This document shows, piece after piece, positions 52,964 to 56,671 of a stretch of 64,000 nt of DNA. Each line of letters begins with the position of its first letter. Within the stretch, counting starts at the first letter, position 1. This DNA is from Diacronema lutheri (Eukaryota; Haptophyta; Pavlovophyceae; Pavlovales; Pavlovaceae), in assembly GCA_019448385.1 (NCBI GenBank), contig JAGTXO010000034.1, positions 106,001 to 170,000 of the forward strand, written 5' to 3'. The notes beneath the pieces were generated by a model. The model searched no databases. It had not been told where the DNA came from and saw only the letters and a program-made list of their open reading frames with translations. Made by a program: the position numbers and the translations under genes.

Positions 52964-52995
52964 CTCAACTGCGAACCATCGCAGGTCACCCCGGC
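52964..52995 (-). pseudogene. Truncated tRNA-Sec copy at array edge
   Basis: Only the 5' acceptor strand, D arm and first half of the anticodon arm are present. The rest is replaced by unrelated sequence (gatagccaagagcatcgcct) at the array boundary. Confidence 0.85.
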
Positions 52996-53088
52996 AACGG
53001 GCCCACGCCTCGCATGCGCGTGACGCGGCCCAGCCCGCACGCACTGCACGGCGTGCGGGAGCCCACGAGGAAGGGGAAAGCACACATG

Positions 53089-53176
53089 CGCCGGTGAGGC
53101 TGAATCGAACAGCTACGGCGGTGAGCCGTCCTGGGGTTTGAAGCCTCAACTGCGAACCATCGCAGGTCACCCCGGC
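53089..53176 (-). tRNA. tRNA-Sec(UCA), copy 1, anticodon-stem variant
   Basis: Same 88-nt body as the intact copies described at 53455, except that the 3' strand of the anticodon stem reads CCCCA instead of CCTCA. This creates an A-C mismatch in the middle of that stem. The copy may be weakened or non-functional. Confidence 0.8.
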
Positions 53177-53270
53177 AACGGGCCACGCCTCGCATGCGCA
53201 AGACGCGGCCCAGCCCGCACGCACTGCACGGCGTGCGGGAGCCCACGAGGAAAAAGGGAAAGCACACATG

Positions 53271-53358
53271 CGCCGGTGAGGCTGAATCGAACAGCTACGG
53301 CGGTGAGCCGTCCTGGGGTTTGAAGCCTCAACTGCGAACCATCGCAGGTCACCCCGGC
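53271..53358 (-). tRNA. tRNA-Sec(UCA), copy 2, anticodon-stem variant
   Basis: Identical in the tRNA body to copy 1, including the CCCCA change in the anticodon stem. The two variant copies are adjacent at one end of the array, suggesting local duplication after the mutation. It differs from copy 1 in its flank, where it has a T5 run downstream of the tRNA. Confidence 0.8.
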
Positions 53359-53454
53359 AACGGGCCACGCCTCGCATGCGCAAGACGCGGCCCAGCCCGC
53401 ACGCGGCAATGCATTGCGTGTGGGAGCCCACGAGGAAAGGGGAAAGCACGCATG

Positions 53455-53542
53455 CGCCGGTGAGGCTGAATCGAACAGCTACGGCGGTGAGCCGTCCTGA
53501 GGTTTGAAGCCTCAACTGCGAACCATCGCAGGTCACCCCGGC
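53455..53542 (-). tRNA. tRNA-Sec(UCA), copy 3, intact
   Basis: Read 5'->3' on the minus strand. Acceptor strand GCCGGGGTG pairs with CTCACCGGC over nine positions, with a U-U at position 8 (as in human tRNA-Sec) and a G-A at position 6. The D stem has six pairs, CTGCGA/TCGCAG, closed by a TGGT loop. The anticodon stem is TGAGG/CCTCA with loop CTTCAAA, giving anticodon TCA. The long variable arm is ACGGC/GCCGT with a 5-nt loop. The T stem has four pairs, GCTG/CAGC, with loop TTCGATT, then discriminator G. The 9/4 acceptor/T layout, 6-bp D stem, long extra arm and UCA anticodon are the hallmarks of eukaryotic selenocysteine tRNA, which decodes UGA at SECIS-directed sites after Ser charging and conversion by PSTK and SEPSECS. 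Confidence 0.95.
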
Positions 53543-53635
53543 AACGGGCCGCGCCTCGCATGCGCACGACGCGGCCCAGCCCGCACGCACTGCACGGCGT
53601 GCGGGAGCCCACGAGGAAAGGGGAAAGCACACATG

Positions 53636-53723
53636 CGCCGGTGAGGCTGAATCGAACAGCTACGGCGGTGAGCCGTCCTGAGGTTTGAAGCCTCAACTGC
53701 GAACCATCGCAGGTCACCCCGGC
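53636..53723 (-). tRNA. tRNA-Sec(UCA), copy 4, intact
   Basis: Body identical to copy 3 in all stems and loops. The adjacent spacer carries a small insertion (cgcgggatgc) next to the 5' flank of the next unit. Confidence 0.93.
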
Positions 53724-53819
53724 AACGGGCCGCGCCTCGCGGGATGCGCAAGACGCGGCCCAGCCCGCACGCACTGCACGGCGTGCGGGAGCCCACGAGG
53801 AAAGGGGAAAGCACACATG

Positions 53820-53907
53820 CGCCGGTGAGGCTGAATCGAACAGCTACGGCGGTGAGCCGTCCTGAGGTTTGAAGCCTCAACTGCGAACCATCGCAGGTCA
53901 CCCCGGC
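53820..53907 (-). tRNA. tRNA-Sec(UCA), copy 5, intact
   Basis: Body identical to copy 3. Confidence 0.93.
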
Positions 53908-54000
53908 AACGGGCCACGCCTCGCATGCGCAAGACGCGGCCCAGCCCGCACGCACTGCACGGCGTGCGGGAGCCCACGAGGAAAGGGGAAAGCACACATG

Positions 54001-54088
54001 CGCCGGTGAGGCTGAATCGAACAGCTACGGCGGTGAGCCGTCCTGAGGTTTGAAGCCTCAACTGCGAACCATCGCAGGTCACCCCGGC
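54001..54088 (-). tRNA. tRNA-Sec(UCA), copy 6, intact
   Basis: Body identical to copy 3. The 3' flank on the minus strand is CATGTGTGCTTTCCCC, with only T3 runs as possible Pol III terminators. Confidence 0.93.
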
Positions 54089-54182
54089 AACGGGCCGCGC
54101 CTCGCATGCGCAAGACGCGGCCCAGCCCGCACGCACTGCACGGCGTGCGGGAGCCCACGAGGAAAAAGGGAAAGCACACATG

Positions 54183-54270
54183 CGCCGGTGAGGCTGAATC
54201 GAACAGCTACGGCGGTGAGCCGTCCTGAGGTTTGAAGCCTCAACTGCGAACCATCGCAGGTCACCCCGGC
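54183..54270 (-). tRNA. tRNA-Sec(UCA), copy 7, intact
   Basis: Body identical to copy 3. The 3' flank includes a T5 run (aaaaa on the plus strand, near 54163-54167), a better Pol III terminator than in most copies. Confidence 0.93.
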
Positions 54271-54366
54271 AACGGGCCGCGCCTCGCATGCGCACGACGC
54301 GGCCCAGCCCGCACGCGGCAATGCATTGCGTGCGGGAGCCCACGAGGAAAGGGGAAGGCACACATG

Positions 54367-54454
54367 CGCCGGTGAGGCTGAATCGAACAGCTACGGCGGT
54401 GAGCCGTCCTGAGGTTTGAAGCCTCAACTGCGAACCATCGCAGGTCACCCCGGC
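54367..54454 (-). tRNA. tRNA-Sec(UCA), copy 8, intact
   Basis: Body identical to copy 3. The spacer hairpin loop is the ggcaatgcatt type. Confidence 0.93.
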
Positions 54455-54550
54455 AACGGGCCACGCCTCGCATGCGCGTGGCGCGGCCCAGCCCGCACGC
54501 GGCAATGCATTGCGTGCGGGAGCCCACGAGGAAAGGGGAAAGCACACATG

Positions 54551-54638
54551 CGCCGGTGAGGCTGAATCGAACAGCTACGGCGGTGAGCCGTCCTGAGGTT
54601 TGAAGCCTCAACTGCGAACCATCGCAGGTCACCCCGGC
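54551..54638 (-). tRNA. tRNA-Sec(UCA), copy 9, intact, array edge
   Basis: Body identical to copy 3. Sequence upstream of its 5' end (minus strand) is unique, starting at 54639, so it lacks the array-type 5' flank. If upstream elements drive transcription, as for animal tRNA-Sec, this copy may be expressed differently. Confidence 0.92.
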
Positions 54639-54903
54639 AGAGCAGCACGCGCAGTGCGGAAGGGCGTTTGCACACCGTCGCGGGTATTGAACACGTGCAG
54701 AGCGCGCAGGGCAGGTGACGCAAGCGGCGTGTGCACGCGGCCGCAACGTGCAGAGCAACGCACACTGGCGGGCACATCGCGGCACAAGCGCCGGTCCACG
54801 CGCCGCTCGAGTCCCCGCACCGCGCATCAAGCACTCTGAGATTGGCATGTGCCGCGTGTCTCGAAGCCGCTCTCCGTCGATTTTCAAAAGCACAATACTA
54901 CGC
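54639..54903. other. Spacer between tRNA array and foldback element
   Basis: 265 bp of unique sequence, without coding character or recognisable RNA. Confidence 0.4.
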
Positions 54904-55937
54904 GTTGGGTTGGGGAAGTCCACTCGCGAAAAAAAAAGGAAAAGCAGCCGAGCGGGAAGAGATGTCACGCACGCGTGCCGGCGGGCGCGCGGGCGGCGGG
55001 CCGGAGCTCGCAGTGGCCAATGCGGCCGATGCGCGTGTCGCGCGCTCGGCTGTGGGTGCATCATCAGCCGACGCACCCGGAGCCGAGCGCGCGACACGCG
55101 CTTCGGCCGACTCGCCGACTTCCGCATCGGAGGGCGCGCCGGCGGATGCGCCGGTGCGCGCGCCGGCCGCGCACGACGCATCGGACGGTGATGCTCATGA
55201 CGGCGACGGCGCGTTTCTCTGCAAGGTGCGCATGCTAAGCGGCCCGGCGACCGTAAGCGGCGCATCACCCCGCAGCTCATGCACGTGTGGGTATACCAGC
55301 GAGACGTGCTCGGATGGACGGCCAAGTACATCGCCGGCGCATCCGCCAGCGTGGGCGCGCGCGAGCCGGCCTCTTGGACGCCGGACGTCCCAGCCAATAA
55401 GCCAGCTCGGGAGCTGGCTTATTTTTGGCTCGTCGACCTCTTCCTCCTCCTCTGCCGCCTCCTCCTCGTCCGTCTGCGTGGGCGCGCGCGAGCCGGCGCG
55501 CCAGTGGGCGAGCTGTCGCCCCTCGGCTTGGCTTGGCGAGAGGCGCATGGGCGCCTTTGAGACGCGCCGGCCGACGAGCGGCTGTGCGCCACGCGCCTGG
55601 TCCACCGCACGCTCCACCACCCGAGCGGCCCGGCTCGACTTGTCGGCGCCCACCTTGTTGCGCGGCGCGGCCGGCGCGCGCACCGGCGCATCCGCCGGCG
55701 CGCCCTCCGATGCGGAAGTCGGTGAGTCGGCCGAAGCGCGTGTCGCGCGCTCGGCTCCGGGTGCGTCGGCTGATGATGCACCCACAGCCGAGGGCGCGAC
55801 ACGCGCATCGGCCGCATTGGCCACTGCGAGCTCCGGCCCGCCGCCCGCGCGCCCGCCGGCACGCGTGCGTGACATCATTCTCTTCCCGCTCGGCTGCTTT
55901 TCCTTTTTTTTTCGCGCTGGGACTTCCCCAACCCAAC
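54904..55937. mobile_element. Foldback element with approximately 270-bp inverted arms
   Basis: The left arm 54904-55172 and right arm 55665-55937 are near-perfect reverse complements. Outer ends are gttgggttggggaagtc at 54904 and its complement ending at 55937; inner ends lie at the shared gcgcgccggccgcgc block. The arms flank about 490 bp of unique sequence. No target-site duplication is obvious beside the ends. The layout matches foldback or MITE-like elements, or a local inverted duplication of a gene's 5' part. The arms contain an open frame starting ATGTCACGCACGCG in both orientations. An in-core hairpin (55396-55408 with 55411-55423) is followed by T5. Confidence 0.75.
55195..55878 (-). 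CDS. Possible 227-aa protein within the foldback element
   Basis: A continuous minus-strand frame from ATG 55878 (second ATG at 55875) runs through the right arm into the core and stops at 55195. The N-terminal 70 residues are Ala/Gly/Arg/Asp-rich. The core part has normal-looking sequence: VVERAVDQARGAQPLVGRR, then PTQTDEEEAAEEEEEVDEPK and SLVYPHVHELRGD. I recognise no transposase or other family. The left arm repeats the same N terminus on the plus strand and runs on into different sequence, so one of the two is a rearranged copy. It may be a remnant or not translated. Confidence 0.35.
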   Translation of the reverse strand: MMSRTRAGGRAGGGPELAVANAADARVAPSAVGASSADAPGAERATRASADSPTSASEGAPADAPVRAPAAPRNKVGADKSSRAARVVERAVDQARGAQPLVGRRVSKAPMRLSPSQAEGRQLAHWRAGSRAPTQTDEEEAAEEEEEVDEPKISQLPSWLIGWDVRRPRGRLARAHAGGCAGDVLGRPSEHVSLVYPHVHELRGDAPLTVAGPLSMRTLQRNAPSPS

Positions 55938-56671
55938 CAGGGAATGAGATTTCGGGGCGAAATACAAATTTGCCATTTCGCCCCCCGAAATTTCGCCCCG
56001 AAATGGGGCGAATTTCGGTTTTCTTTCGGGGGGCGAAATTTCGGGCGAATTTTGCCCCGAAATCCGTTTCGGGGCGAAATTCGGGGCGAATTTCGCCCGG
56101 CAGCATTCGCAGCAACGGCCCATATGTACACATACTAACGTCGCGCGATGTTCATGTTGTCATGCTCAAGGCGGCGTGGGCGGGATGAAGCCGCCACCTG
56201 CGAGTCACAGTCGACTCGCAGAAGCGCGACTCATCGGCAGCGCGACGGAGCACCGTGCAAAAGGTCTTCAAGTCGGGCAGCCTGCCGGTCAAGGTCTTGT
56301 TTGAGGACGGAATGTGCCGCTGCTGCCTCGAGGCTGACACCTACGGCGTCACCGGTGGGCGGCTCTGGGCCCTCGTCCCACGCTCGCCGATCGCGCACGG
56401 GACCCTTTGGAGCGCTGACGCGGGGCGCGTCGTGATTGACGACTCCGAGTATGCAGCATGACACTGAATTTTTCGCCCCCCGAAATTTCGCCCCCCGAAA
56501 TTCGCCCCCCGAAATTTCGCCCCGAAATGGTCATTTCGCCCCGAATTTGGCCCGAAATTTCGCCCCCCGAATTTCGCCCCGAAACGGAACCCAAAACCGG
56601 CATTTCGTTTCGGGGCGAATTCGGGGGCGAAACGTTTCGCCCCGAAATTTCGCCTCATTCCCTGCCAACGC
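55938..56671. mobile_element. Second inverted-repeat element with ttcggggcgaaa clusters
   Basis: Two A/T-richer clusters, 55940-56098 and 56465-56665, are built from many copies of the palindrome-like unit tttcgccccgaaa in both orientations. The outer ends mirror each other: cagggaatgag at 55938 and ctcattccctg at 56659-56669. Between them lie about 360 bp with normal composition and a short open frame (56255-56461). It abuts the first element directly. This looks like a foldback transposon with subterminal repeats, but I see no transposase. Composition differs sharply from the rest of the window. Confidence 0.6.
56255..56461 (+). CDS. Orphan exon-like frame inside second element
   Basis: A 68-codon frame with strong GC third positions reads like a folded domain end (VFKSGSLPVKVLFEDGMCRC, GGRLWALVPRSP, VVIDDSEYAA) and stops at 56461. 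There is no ATG near its start. An acceptor-like caaaag at 56258-56263 could begin an exon, but I could not find a convincing upstream exon. No family is recognised. It may be a captured gene fragment. Confidence 0.35.
   Translation: MQKVFKSGSLPVKVLFEDGMCRCCLEADTYGVTGGRLWALVPRSPIAHGTLWSADAGRVVIDDSEYAA

What the first reader, a model, noticed from the sequence alone, without database searches (positions are those of the whole stretch)
52964..54638. Tandem amplification of selenocysteine tRNA genes
Nine complete tRNA-Sec(UCA) genes lie in head-to-tail units of about 182 bp on the minus strand. The fold is read directly: 9-position acceptor stem with the U-U mismatch seen in human tRNA-Sec, 6-bp D stem with TGGT loop, long extra arm, 4-bp T stem, and loop CTTCAAA. 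Eukaryotes normally carry one or very few tRNA-Sec genes. A homogenised array would give a dosage unusual for UGA recoding and suggests heavy selenoprotein use.
Basis: partly seen in the sequence, partly recalled or inferred. Interest (0 to 1): 0.92.

Follow-up and report, generated by a model that had tools for sequence, protein, structure and literature searches.

The report
Nine tandem selenocysteine tRNA genes
A marine alga carries nine head-to-tail copies of the gene for the tRNA that inserts selenocysteine, more than for any other tRNA found in its genome, and these nine lack a control element seen at nearly all the other small-RNA genes examined, which hints at an unusual way of making this tRNA.

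Summary
ARAGORN and Rfam RF01852 both find nine tRNA-Sec(UCA) genes on the minus strand at 53088-54638, plus a truncated tenth at 52964-52995. The genome matches Diacronema lutheri, a haptophyte. No other tRNA-Sec was found; other anticodons found have one to four genes. The tRNA varies at 1 of 88 columns, the spacers at 21 of 101: the copies look constrained. Selenocysteine is used: SepSecS, SelD and eight loci with in-frame TGA at catalytic positions. New here: an AT-rich upstream element marks 30/30 training tRNA genes, 9/10 unique held-out ones (8/10 at the training minimum), U6 and 6/6 fetched 5S loci, but 0/9 tRNA-Sec copies. T4 follows 2/9 copies, but 5/6 fetched 5S loci lack it too. 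The array is probably transcribed differently from other Pol III genes; expression was not testable. Precedent exists: Trypanosoma cruzi has eleven tandem tRNA-Sec genes and three listed selenoproteins. Heavy selenoprotein use is not established.

The parts
54550..54638 (-). tRNA-Sec(UCA) copy 1 (head of array; unique upstream)
   Evidence: 71.1 bits
54366..54454 (-). tRNA-Sec copy 2
   Evidence: 71.1 bits
54182..54270 (-). tRNA-Sec copy 3 (followed by T5)
   Evidence: (71.1 bits)
54000..54088 (-). tRNA-Sec copy 4
   Evidence: 71.1 bits
53819..53907 (-). tRNA-Sec copy 5
   Evidence: 71.1 bits
53635..53723 (-). tRNA-Sec copy 6
   Evidence: 71.1 bits
53454..53542 (-). tRNA-Sec copy 7
   Evidence: 71.1 bits
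53270..53358 (-). tRNA-Sec copy 8, A.C mismatch in anticodon stem; followed by T5
   Evidence: (67.0 bits)
53088..53176 (-). tRNA-Sec copy 9, A.C mismatch in anticodon stem
   Evidence: (67.0 bits)
52964..52995 (-). truncated tenth copy, first 32 nt of the tRNA
   Evidence: sequence read directly
54455..54550 (-). spacer 1: short T runs, then two hairpin-forming stretches; spacers 2-9 alike at 54271-54366, 54089-54182, 53908-54000, 53724-53819, 53543-53635, 53359-53454, 53177-53270, 52996-53088
   Evidence: (five of nine folded)
54639..54903 (-). unique upstream region of the array head, up to the arm of an inverted duplication; no convincing match to the upstream element of the other Pol III genes

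Best explanation
This is the genome's only detected source of tRNA-Sec: nine intact genes and one remnant, made by tandem duplication of a tRNA plus its 3' flank and kept alike by unequal exchange or gene conversion with purifying selection on the tRNA part (the sequence contrast is shown; the process is inferred). It serves a selenocysteine system (two machinery genes and Sec codons shown; use inferred). Because none of the nine copies has the upstream element found at nearly every other Pol III gene examined here, and seven of nine lack a T4 run, I infer that the copies are made in another way: either as a precursor holding several tRNAs, by Pol II or by Pol III read-through, cut out by the usual tRNA end-processing enzymes, or by weak Pol III initiation at the internal B box. 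Amplification would then compensate for low output per copy. The array itself is near certain; the atypical transcription is likely; which polymerase is open. The confidence is for the whole statement including atypical transcription.
For: Nine hits by two methods; only these nine in the genome, and the array DNA matches only itself there. tRNA 1 of 88 variable columns against spacer 21 of 101, Fisher P 1.3e-5 (copies are related, so P is optimistic). SepSecS on C48, SelD on C9; in-frame TGA at catalytic positions in 2 GPx, 2 SelT-like and 1 SelW-like loci and 3 MsrA loci; SECIS-like hairpins near TGA genes. Upstream element: 30 of 30 tRNA loci used to find it; held-out tRNA loci 10 of 12 (9 of 10 unique) at 16.3 bits or more, or 9 of 12 (8 of 10 unique) at the training minimum of 16.5; U6 23.6 bits; 6 of 6 fetched 5S loci (of 12 hits) 25-32 bits; but 0 of 9 Sec copies (best 5.6 bits) and U2 only 5.9 bits. 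9/10 or 8/10 against 0/9 gives Fisher P 1.2e-4 or 7e-4. T4 or longer downstream: 30 of 30 and 11 of 12 tRNA loci against 2 of 9 Sec copies.
Against: No expression data could be used. The B-box core is intact in Sec (GTTCGATTC) as in 30 of 30 other tRNAs tested, so internal Pol III initiation is possible. Five of six fetched 5S loci also lack T4 within 60 nt, so a missing T4 does not by itself argue against Pol III. Not every other Pol III gene has the element: the second gene of the Leu-AAG pair lacks it (-2.2 bits). Copy 1 has a half match GTTCAATAC at -54 (7.3 bits, chance 0.05), and a T-rich stretch at -308 scores 14.2 bits. The spacer hairpins show no compensatory change. Held-out n is small and the nine copies are not independent.
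Confidence: 0.55

Rival explanations
1. An ordinary Pol III tandem tRNA cluster: each copy is transcribed on its own from internal boxes, T3 runs suffice to stop, and the copies are a neutral by-product of unequal exchange.
For: B box intact in Sec and in 30 of 30 others tested; 5S loci in the same genome also often lack T4 (5 of 6 fetched); the second Leu-AAG gene also lacks the upstream element; no correlation of tRNA-Sec number with selenoprotein number in the survey.
Against: Absence of the upstream element in 9 of 9 copies against its presence in 9 of 10 unique held-out tRNA genes (P 1.2e-4; 8 of 10, P 7e-4, at the stricter cut-off); T4 in 2 of 9 against 39 of 40 unique tRNA genes (P 3.2e-6).
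Confidence: 0.35
2. Adaptive dosage increase for heavy selenoprotein use.
For: Eight Sec-coding loci in three families searched; the haptophyte E. huxleyi is reported with 96 selenoprotein genes (PMC7539508 passages).
Against: No correlation in the survey; T. cruzi with eleven tandem copies and three listed selenoproteins; the whole selenoproteome of this genome was not counted here.
Confidence: 0.2
3. An assembly artefact or an array of dead copies.
For: Two of nine copies have an A.C mismatch; no reads could be examined.
Against: All nine units differ from each other (2-15 alignment columns), which false repetition of one unit would not give; the array (1,675 bp) is shorter than the minimum PacBio read length of 3,000 set for assembly, at about x315 coverage (PMC8379373); the tRNA part is conserved while spacers vary.
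Confidence: 0.04

Closest known systems
Trypanosoma cruzi Dm28c tRNA-Sec tandem cluster (PMC12421993, passages)
   Same: Eleven tandem tRNA-Sec(TCA) copies on one contig while the majority of tRNA species have one or two; the paper also reports that tDNA-Sec loci differ from other tDNAs in nucleosome occupancy.
   Different: Unrelated lineage. An earlier study counted eight T. cruzi tRNA-Sec genes, described as independent genes, and reported T runs downstream of all 269 Tritryp tRNA genes (PMC2695483 passages), whereas T4 is missing at seven of nine copies here.
Fragilariopsis cylindrus multiple tRNA-Sec predictions (PMC5330540, section 11)
   Same: Eleven non-identical tRNA-Sec predictions in a eukaryotic alga, two of them with disrupted structure.
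   Different: A tandem layout is not mentioned in the section read; three copies there carry compensatory changes, here none does.
Leishmania major tRNA-Sec, transcribed by Pol II and Pol III (title in the reference list of PMC6463643)
   Same: A protist tRNA-Sec gene departing from pure Pol III transcription (title seen; the paper itself was not held).
   Different: One gene in L. major, no array; here transcription is inferred only.
Vertebrate tRNA-Sec with external TATA/PSE promoter
   Same: tRNA-Sec uses a promoter unlike that of other tRNA genes (PMC2695483 passage on Xenopus).
   Different: Reverse situation: here nearly all other tRNA genes examined, the fetched 5S loci and U6 carry an external AT-rich element and tRNA-Sec does not.

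Membership tests
Eukaryotic tRNA-Sec (RF01852) | UCA anticodon, 9/4 fold, covariance score over gathering threshold | tested here: met
   9 of 9 copies
Eukaryotic tRNA-Sec (RF01852) | G73 discriminator (said to be essential in PMC5330540) | tested here: met
   9 of 9
Eukaryotic tRNA-Sec (RF01852) | Sec machinery and Sec codons in the same genome | tested here: met
   SepSecS, SelD, TGA genes; eEFSec, PSTK and SBP2 not searched
Eukaryotic tRNA-Sec (RF01852) | Expressed and charged with serine, converted to Sec | not testable with these tools
   no RNA data
Amplified tandem tRNA-Sec array (as in T. cruzi Dm28c) | Many head-to-tail copies, other tRNAs at low copy | tested here: met
   compared; the tRNA list is incomplete (no Val or Ile gene among the 42)
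Amplified tandem tRNA-Sec array (as in T. cruzi Dm28c) | Chromatin unlike other tRNA genes | not testable with these tools
   no chromatin data
Standard Pol III gene of this genome | AT-rich upstream element near -40 to -20 | tested here: not met
   0 of 9 copies
Standard Pol III gene of this genome | T4 or longer terminator | tested here: inconclusive
   2 of 9 copies; but 5 of 6 fetched 5S loci lack it too
Standard Pol III gene of this genome | B box core | tested here: met

The most novel reading that the evidence does not exclude
tRNA-Sec has left the normal Pol III programme in this alga: the nine genes form one or a few multi-tRNA transcripts, with hairpins between the tRNAs marking or aiding processing, and gene amplification compensates for low output. 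Together with T. cruzi this would make escape from Pol III followed by tandem amplification a repeated route of tRNA-Sec evolution.
Probability: 0.3. Interest if true: 0.75.

Novelty: new variant of a known kind. Interest (0 to 1): 0.55.

Why it matters
tRNA-Sec is generally assumed to be a single-copy gene (stated in PMC5330540, section 11). Here is a second, distant protist lineage in which it is the amplified tRNA, and in which every copy lacks the upstream element found at nearly all other Pol III genes examined. That makes a testable link between odd transcription of tRNA-Sec and its amplification. The shared upstream element of tRNA, 5S and U6 genes in a haptophyte may also be of practical use, for example for Pol III expression cassettes in an aquaculture alga.

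Tried and rejected
Assembly artefact: disfavoured by unit differences and read length, though no reads were seen. Mobile or dispersed repeat: the array DNA matched only itself in the genome (that search skips simple repeats and very common words), and nothing in the plasmid collection. Viral source: one degenerate eukaryotic tRNA-Sec pattern gave 0 matches in viral contigs. Rfam SECIS_1 found nothing in the genome, so SECIS elements were sought with a script and a small model instead. Spacer hairpins as conserved RNA: 5 of 9 spacers folded, four with z of -2.45 or lower and one -0.63; 22 pairs, 0 with changes on both sides, 3 with one-sided changes, 2 broken once: inconclusive. Shared promoter words with U2: eight shared 8-mers, GC-rich, not informative. 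Pfam on five long open frames around the array: 0 families. Dictyostelium (one tRNA-Sec gene; PMC13063481 passages) and Schistosoma (PMC2770079 passages) papers gave no array; PMC12077095 (passage) and PMC7595633 (passages) gave nothing on copy number. My last paper search was too broad to be useful: 3,450 papers, 20 listed, none of the listed titles on Diacronema selenoproteins.

Full report
WHAT WAS CHECKED. ARAGORN calls nine tRNA-Sec(tca) genes on the minus strand between 53088 and 54638 and no other tRNA in the window. Rfam's gathering-threshold scan returns nine hits in the whole window, all RF01852: seven at 71.1 and two at 67.0 bits against a cut-off of 47. The sequence also shows a truncated tenth copy, the first 32 nt of the tRNA, at 52995 down to 52964.

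WHERE IT IS. The window is contig C19:106001-170000 of a 43,492,796-base genome in 103 contigs. The paper on Diacronema lutheri NIVA-4/92 (PMC8379373; part 1 of 4 of the full text read, and 12 of 14 passages found) gives 43.503 Mb, 103 contigs, a longest contig of 3.042 Mb and an 852.26-kb contig statistic; contigs of 3,042,068 and 852,258 bases are among the loci held here. I take the genome to be this haptophyte. The paper reports 37 tRNAs for the standard 20 amino acids, and a term beginning 'selen' occurs 0 times in its main text.

COPY NUMBER IN CONTEXT. RF01852 finds only these nine in the genome (53 of 3,878 first-look candidates scored). RF00005 gives 42 tRNA genes (63 of 193 candidates scored, so a lower bound). 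All 42 were read with ARAGORN (30, 12). No Val or Ile gene is among them, so the list is incomplete. Most anticodons found occur once; Met, Gly-GCC, Ala-CGC and Leu-CAG occur twice; the highest is Leu-AAG with four hits, which are two pairs with identical 683-base surroundings on C77 and C78 and may be one redundant stretch. tRNA-Sec thus has more genes than any other anticodon found.

ARE THE COPIES REAL AND CONSTRAINED? Units are 181-184 bp and differ pairwise at 2 to 15 alignment columns. In the tRNA 1 of 88 columns varies; in the spacer 21 of 101 (Fisher P 1.3e-5; 17 events if adjacent gaps are merged, P 7e-5). The copies are related, so these P values are optimistic. Spacer types run long-long-short(T5)-short-short-short-long-short(T5)-short; copies 2-3-4 and 7-8-9 share the pattern, and copies 3 and 8 differ at only 2 columns (as do 4 and 6), as unequal exchange of a block of about five units could give (reading; inference). 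Copies 8 and 9 share a T-to-C change that breaks one anticodon-stem pair. PacBio coverage was about x315, with a minimum read length of 3,000 set for assembly, longer than the array, so collapse or false expansion is unlikely, but I saw no reads.

IS SELENOCYSTEINE USED? SepSecS matches lie on C48 (best E 1.5e-47), and SelD on C9 without an internal stop in the matched parts; one matched part starts RCGGCGAK, which I read as a cysteine form. Five in-frame TGA hits have the expected Sec contexts: two GPx (ASC*GATD, ASK*GLTD), two SelT-like (YCAS*) and one SelW-like (YCGG*GY); the SelT and SelW names rest on recalled motifs. MsrA adds three: G*FW on C6 and an inverted pair on C3 whose matched 147 bases are identical. 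That is eight loci in three families searched. Not every member is a Sec form: among the same hits are GPx, Rdx and MsrA matches without TGA. eEFSec, PSTK and SBP2 were not searched.

SECIS. A script for SECIS-like hairpins, run downstream of the five GPx and SelT/SelW loci, found an AA-type with nine or more lower pairs in 3 of 5 loci and a CC-type with ten in one. The control of 87,000 bases gave 10 hits, 2 AA-type with seven pairs each and 8 CC-type, three of these with nine or more pairs; none of the ten is at -20 kcal/mol or below with nine or more pairs, as the four are. These quality cuts were set after seeing the hits. The fifth locus, L045, gave none by script; a candidate was picked by eye and has AG where AA is usual. 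The consensus fold of the five has 15 pairs, 8 with changes on both sides, but the covariation term is slightly unfavourable, +0.84. A model built from these five hits its own five by construction and, out of sample, an MsrA locus L071 at 20.2 bits and the C3 MsrA locus at 14.3 bits. In a control of 125,481 bases (window and 20 of 30 tRNA loci) the best scores were 18.3 and 18.1, so only the L071 hit stands above background, and narrowly. Rfam's SECIS_1 found none in the genome.

AN UPSTREAM ELEMENT THAT THE ARRAY LACKS. In 30 of 30 fetched non-Sec tRNA loci a T4 or longer run begins within 25 nt downstream, and the upstream DNA is AT-rich around -40 to -20. A Gibbs sampler gave an 18-base motif, TTcAtGTACgCTaAATTT, scoring 16.5-37 bits in the 30 training genes, with 0.03 background hits per kb at that level in the window. 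Held out: 10 of 12 further tRNA loci (9 of 10 unique) score 16.3 or more; at the training minimum of 16.5, which one gene misses by 0.2 bits, it is 9 of 12 (8 of 10 unique). The two clear misses are the identical second copies of the Leu-AAG pair. U6 scores 23.6 at -30. All six fetched 5S loci (of 12 hits) score 25.3 or 32.1 at -30, with two upstream types of motif. U2 scores 5.9. The nine Sec copies score at most 5.6 within 100 nt upstream. Within 600 nt of the array head the best is a T-rich stretch of 14.2 bits at -308, at about the 1-in-10,000 background level. A half match, GTTCAATAC, sits at -54 of copy 1 (chance about 0.05). Unique held-out tRNA genes against Sec copies: P 1.2e-4 for 9/10, 7e-4 for 8/10. 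This is the strongest new result. That U6, 5S and tRNA genes are Pol III genes and U2 a Pol II gene is established knowledge, not tested here.

TERMINATORS. T4 or longer occurs in 2 of 9 spacers (T5 in 3 and 8); the rest have at most T3. Other tRNA loci: 30 of 30 within 50 nt and 11 of 12 within 60 nt. Against this reading, 5 of 6 fetched 5S loci also lack T4 in 60 nt, so lack of T4 does not exclude Pol III. If T5 alone stops Pol III here, read-through would give transcripts of copies 1-3 and 4-8 (inference).

SPACER HAIRPINS. The spacer consensus can form a 9-pair hairpin and a 13-pair hairpin ending 3 nt before the next tRNA; of five spacers folded singly, not all keep both in the minimum-energy fold. 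Pairing is kept in 99% of cells, but there is no compensatory change and shuffles cannot discriminate. In so GC-rich a genome this is suggestive at most.

MECHANISM. Shown: a conserved nine-gene array, the only tRNA-Sec source found, in a genome with Sec machinery genes and Sec codons; no standard upstream element. Inferred: transcription unlike other Pol III genes, either as a multi-tRNA precursor (Pol II or Pol III read-through) or by weak internal-box initiation, with copy number making up for low output. Leishmania tRNA-Sec is reported, by the title of a cited paper, to be transcribed by Pol II and Pol III; that T. brucei tRNA-Sec is a Pol II transcript is recalled, not read.

WHAT IS KNOWN. 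Eleven tandem tRNA-Sec genes in T. cruzi Dm28c, the majority of other tRNAs having one or two copies, with nucleosome occupancy at tDNA-Sec unlike other tDNAs (PMC12421993, passages). Eleven tRNA-Sec predictions in Fragilariopsis cylindrus, and no correlation of copy number with selenoprotein number (PMC5330540, section 11). So amplification, and even tandem amplification, is known; what appears new is the haptophyte case and its promoter difference. My searches listed no title or abstract start on tRNA-Sec in Diacronema or Pavlova; they cover open-licence papers only, several lists were capped, and beyond listings I read only the parts named here.

VERDICT. Real, surprising in its genome, partly precedented; a new variant of a known kind. 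Heavy selenoprotein use is not established.

Noticed in passing
window 54904-55172 and 55665-55937: A nearly perfect inverted duplication (212-nt arms 99% and adjoining 59-nt arms 95% complementary) begins 266 nt upstream of the array head, suggesting recent rearrangement next to the array.
   Followed up: partly
L010-L039, L040, L057-L068, L077-L082: A shared upstream element TTcAtGTACgCTaAATTT at about -40 to -20 of most tRNA genes examined, U6 and the fetched 5S loci in this haptophyte genome.
   Followed up: partly
G000 C3:331119-332221 (L072-L075): Two Sec-type MsrA genes in head-to-head inverted duplication, G*FW with TGA in both.
   Followed up: partly
G000 C36:509222-577411 (L077-L082): 5S rRNA genes as several scattered, partly inverted copies rather than one long tandem array; 5 of 6 fetched lack T4 within 60 nt.
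   Followed up: no
G000 C77:96151-97303 and C78:18121-19273: Identical stretches with paired Leu-AAG tRNA genes on two contigs; the second gene of each pair lacks the upstream element. Possibly redundant contig ends.
   Followed up: no
window 55980-56650: Dense short palindromic repeats of the type TTTCGGGGGGCGAAATTTCG.
   Followed up: no
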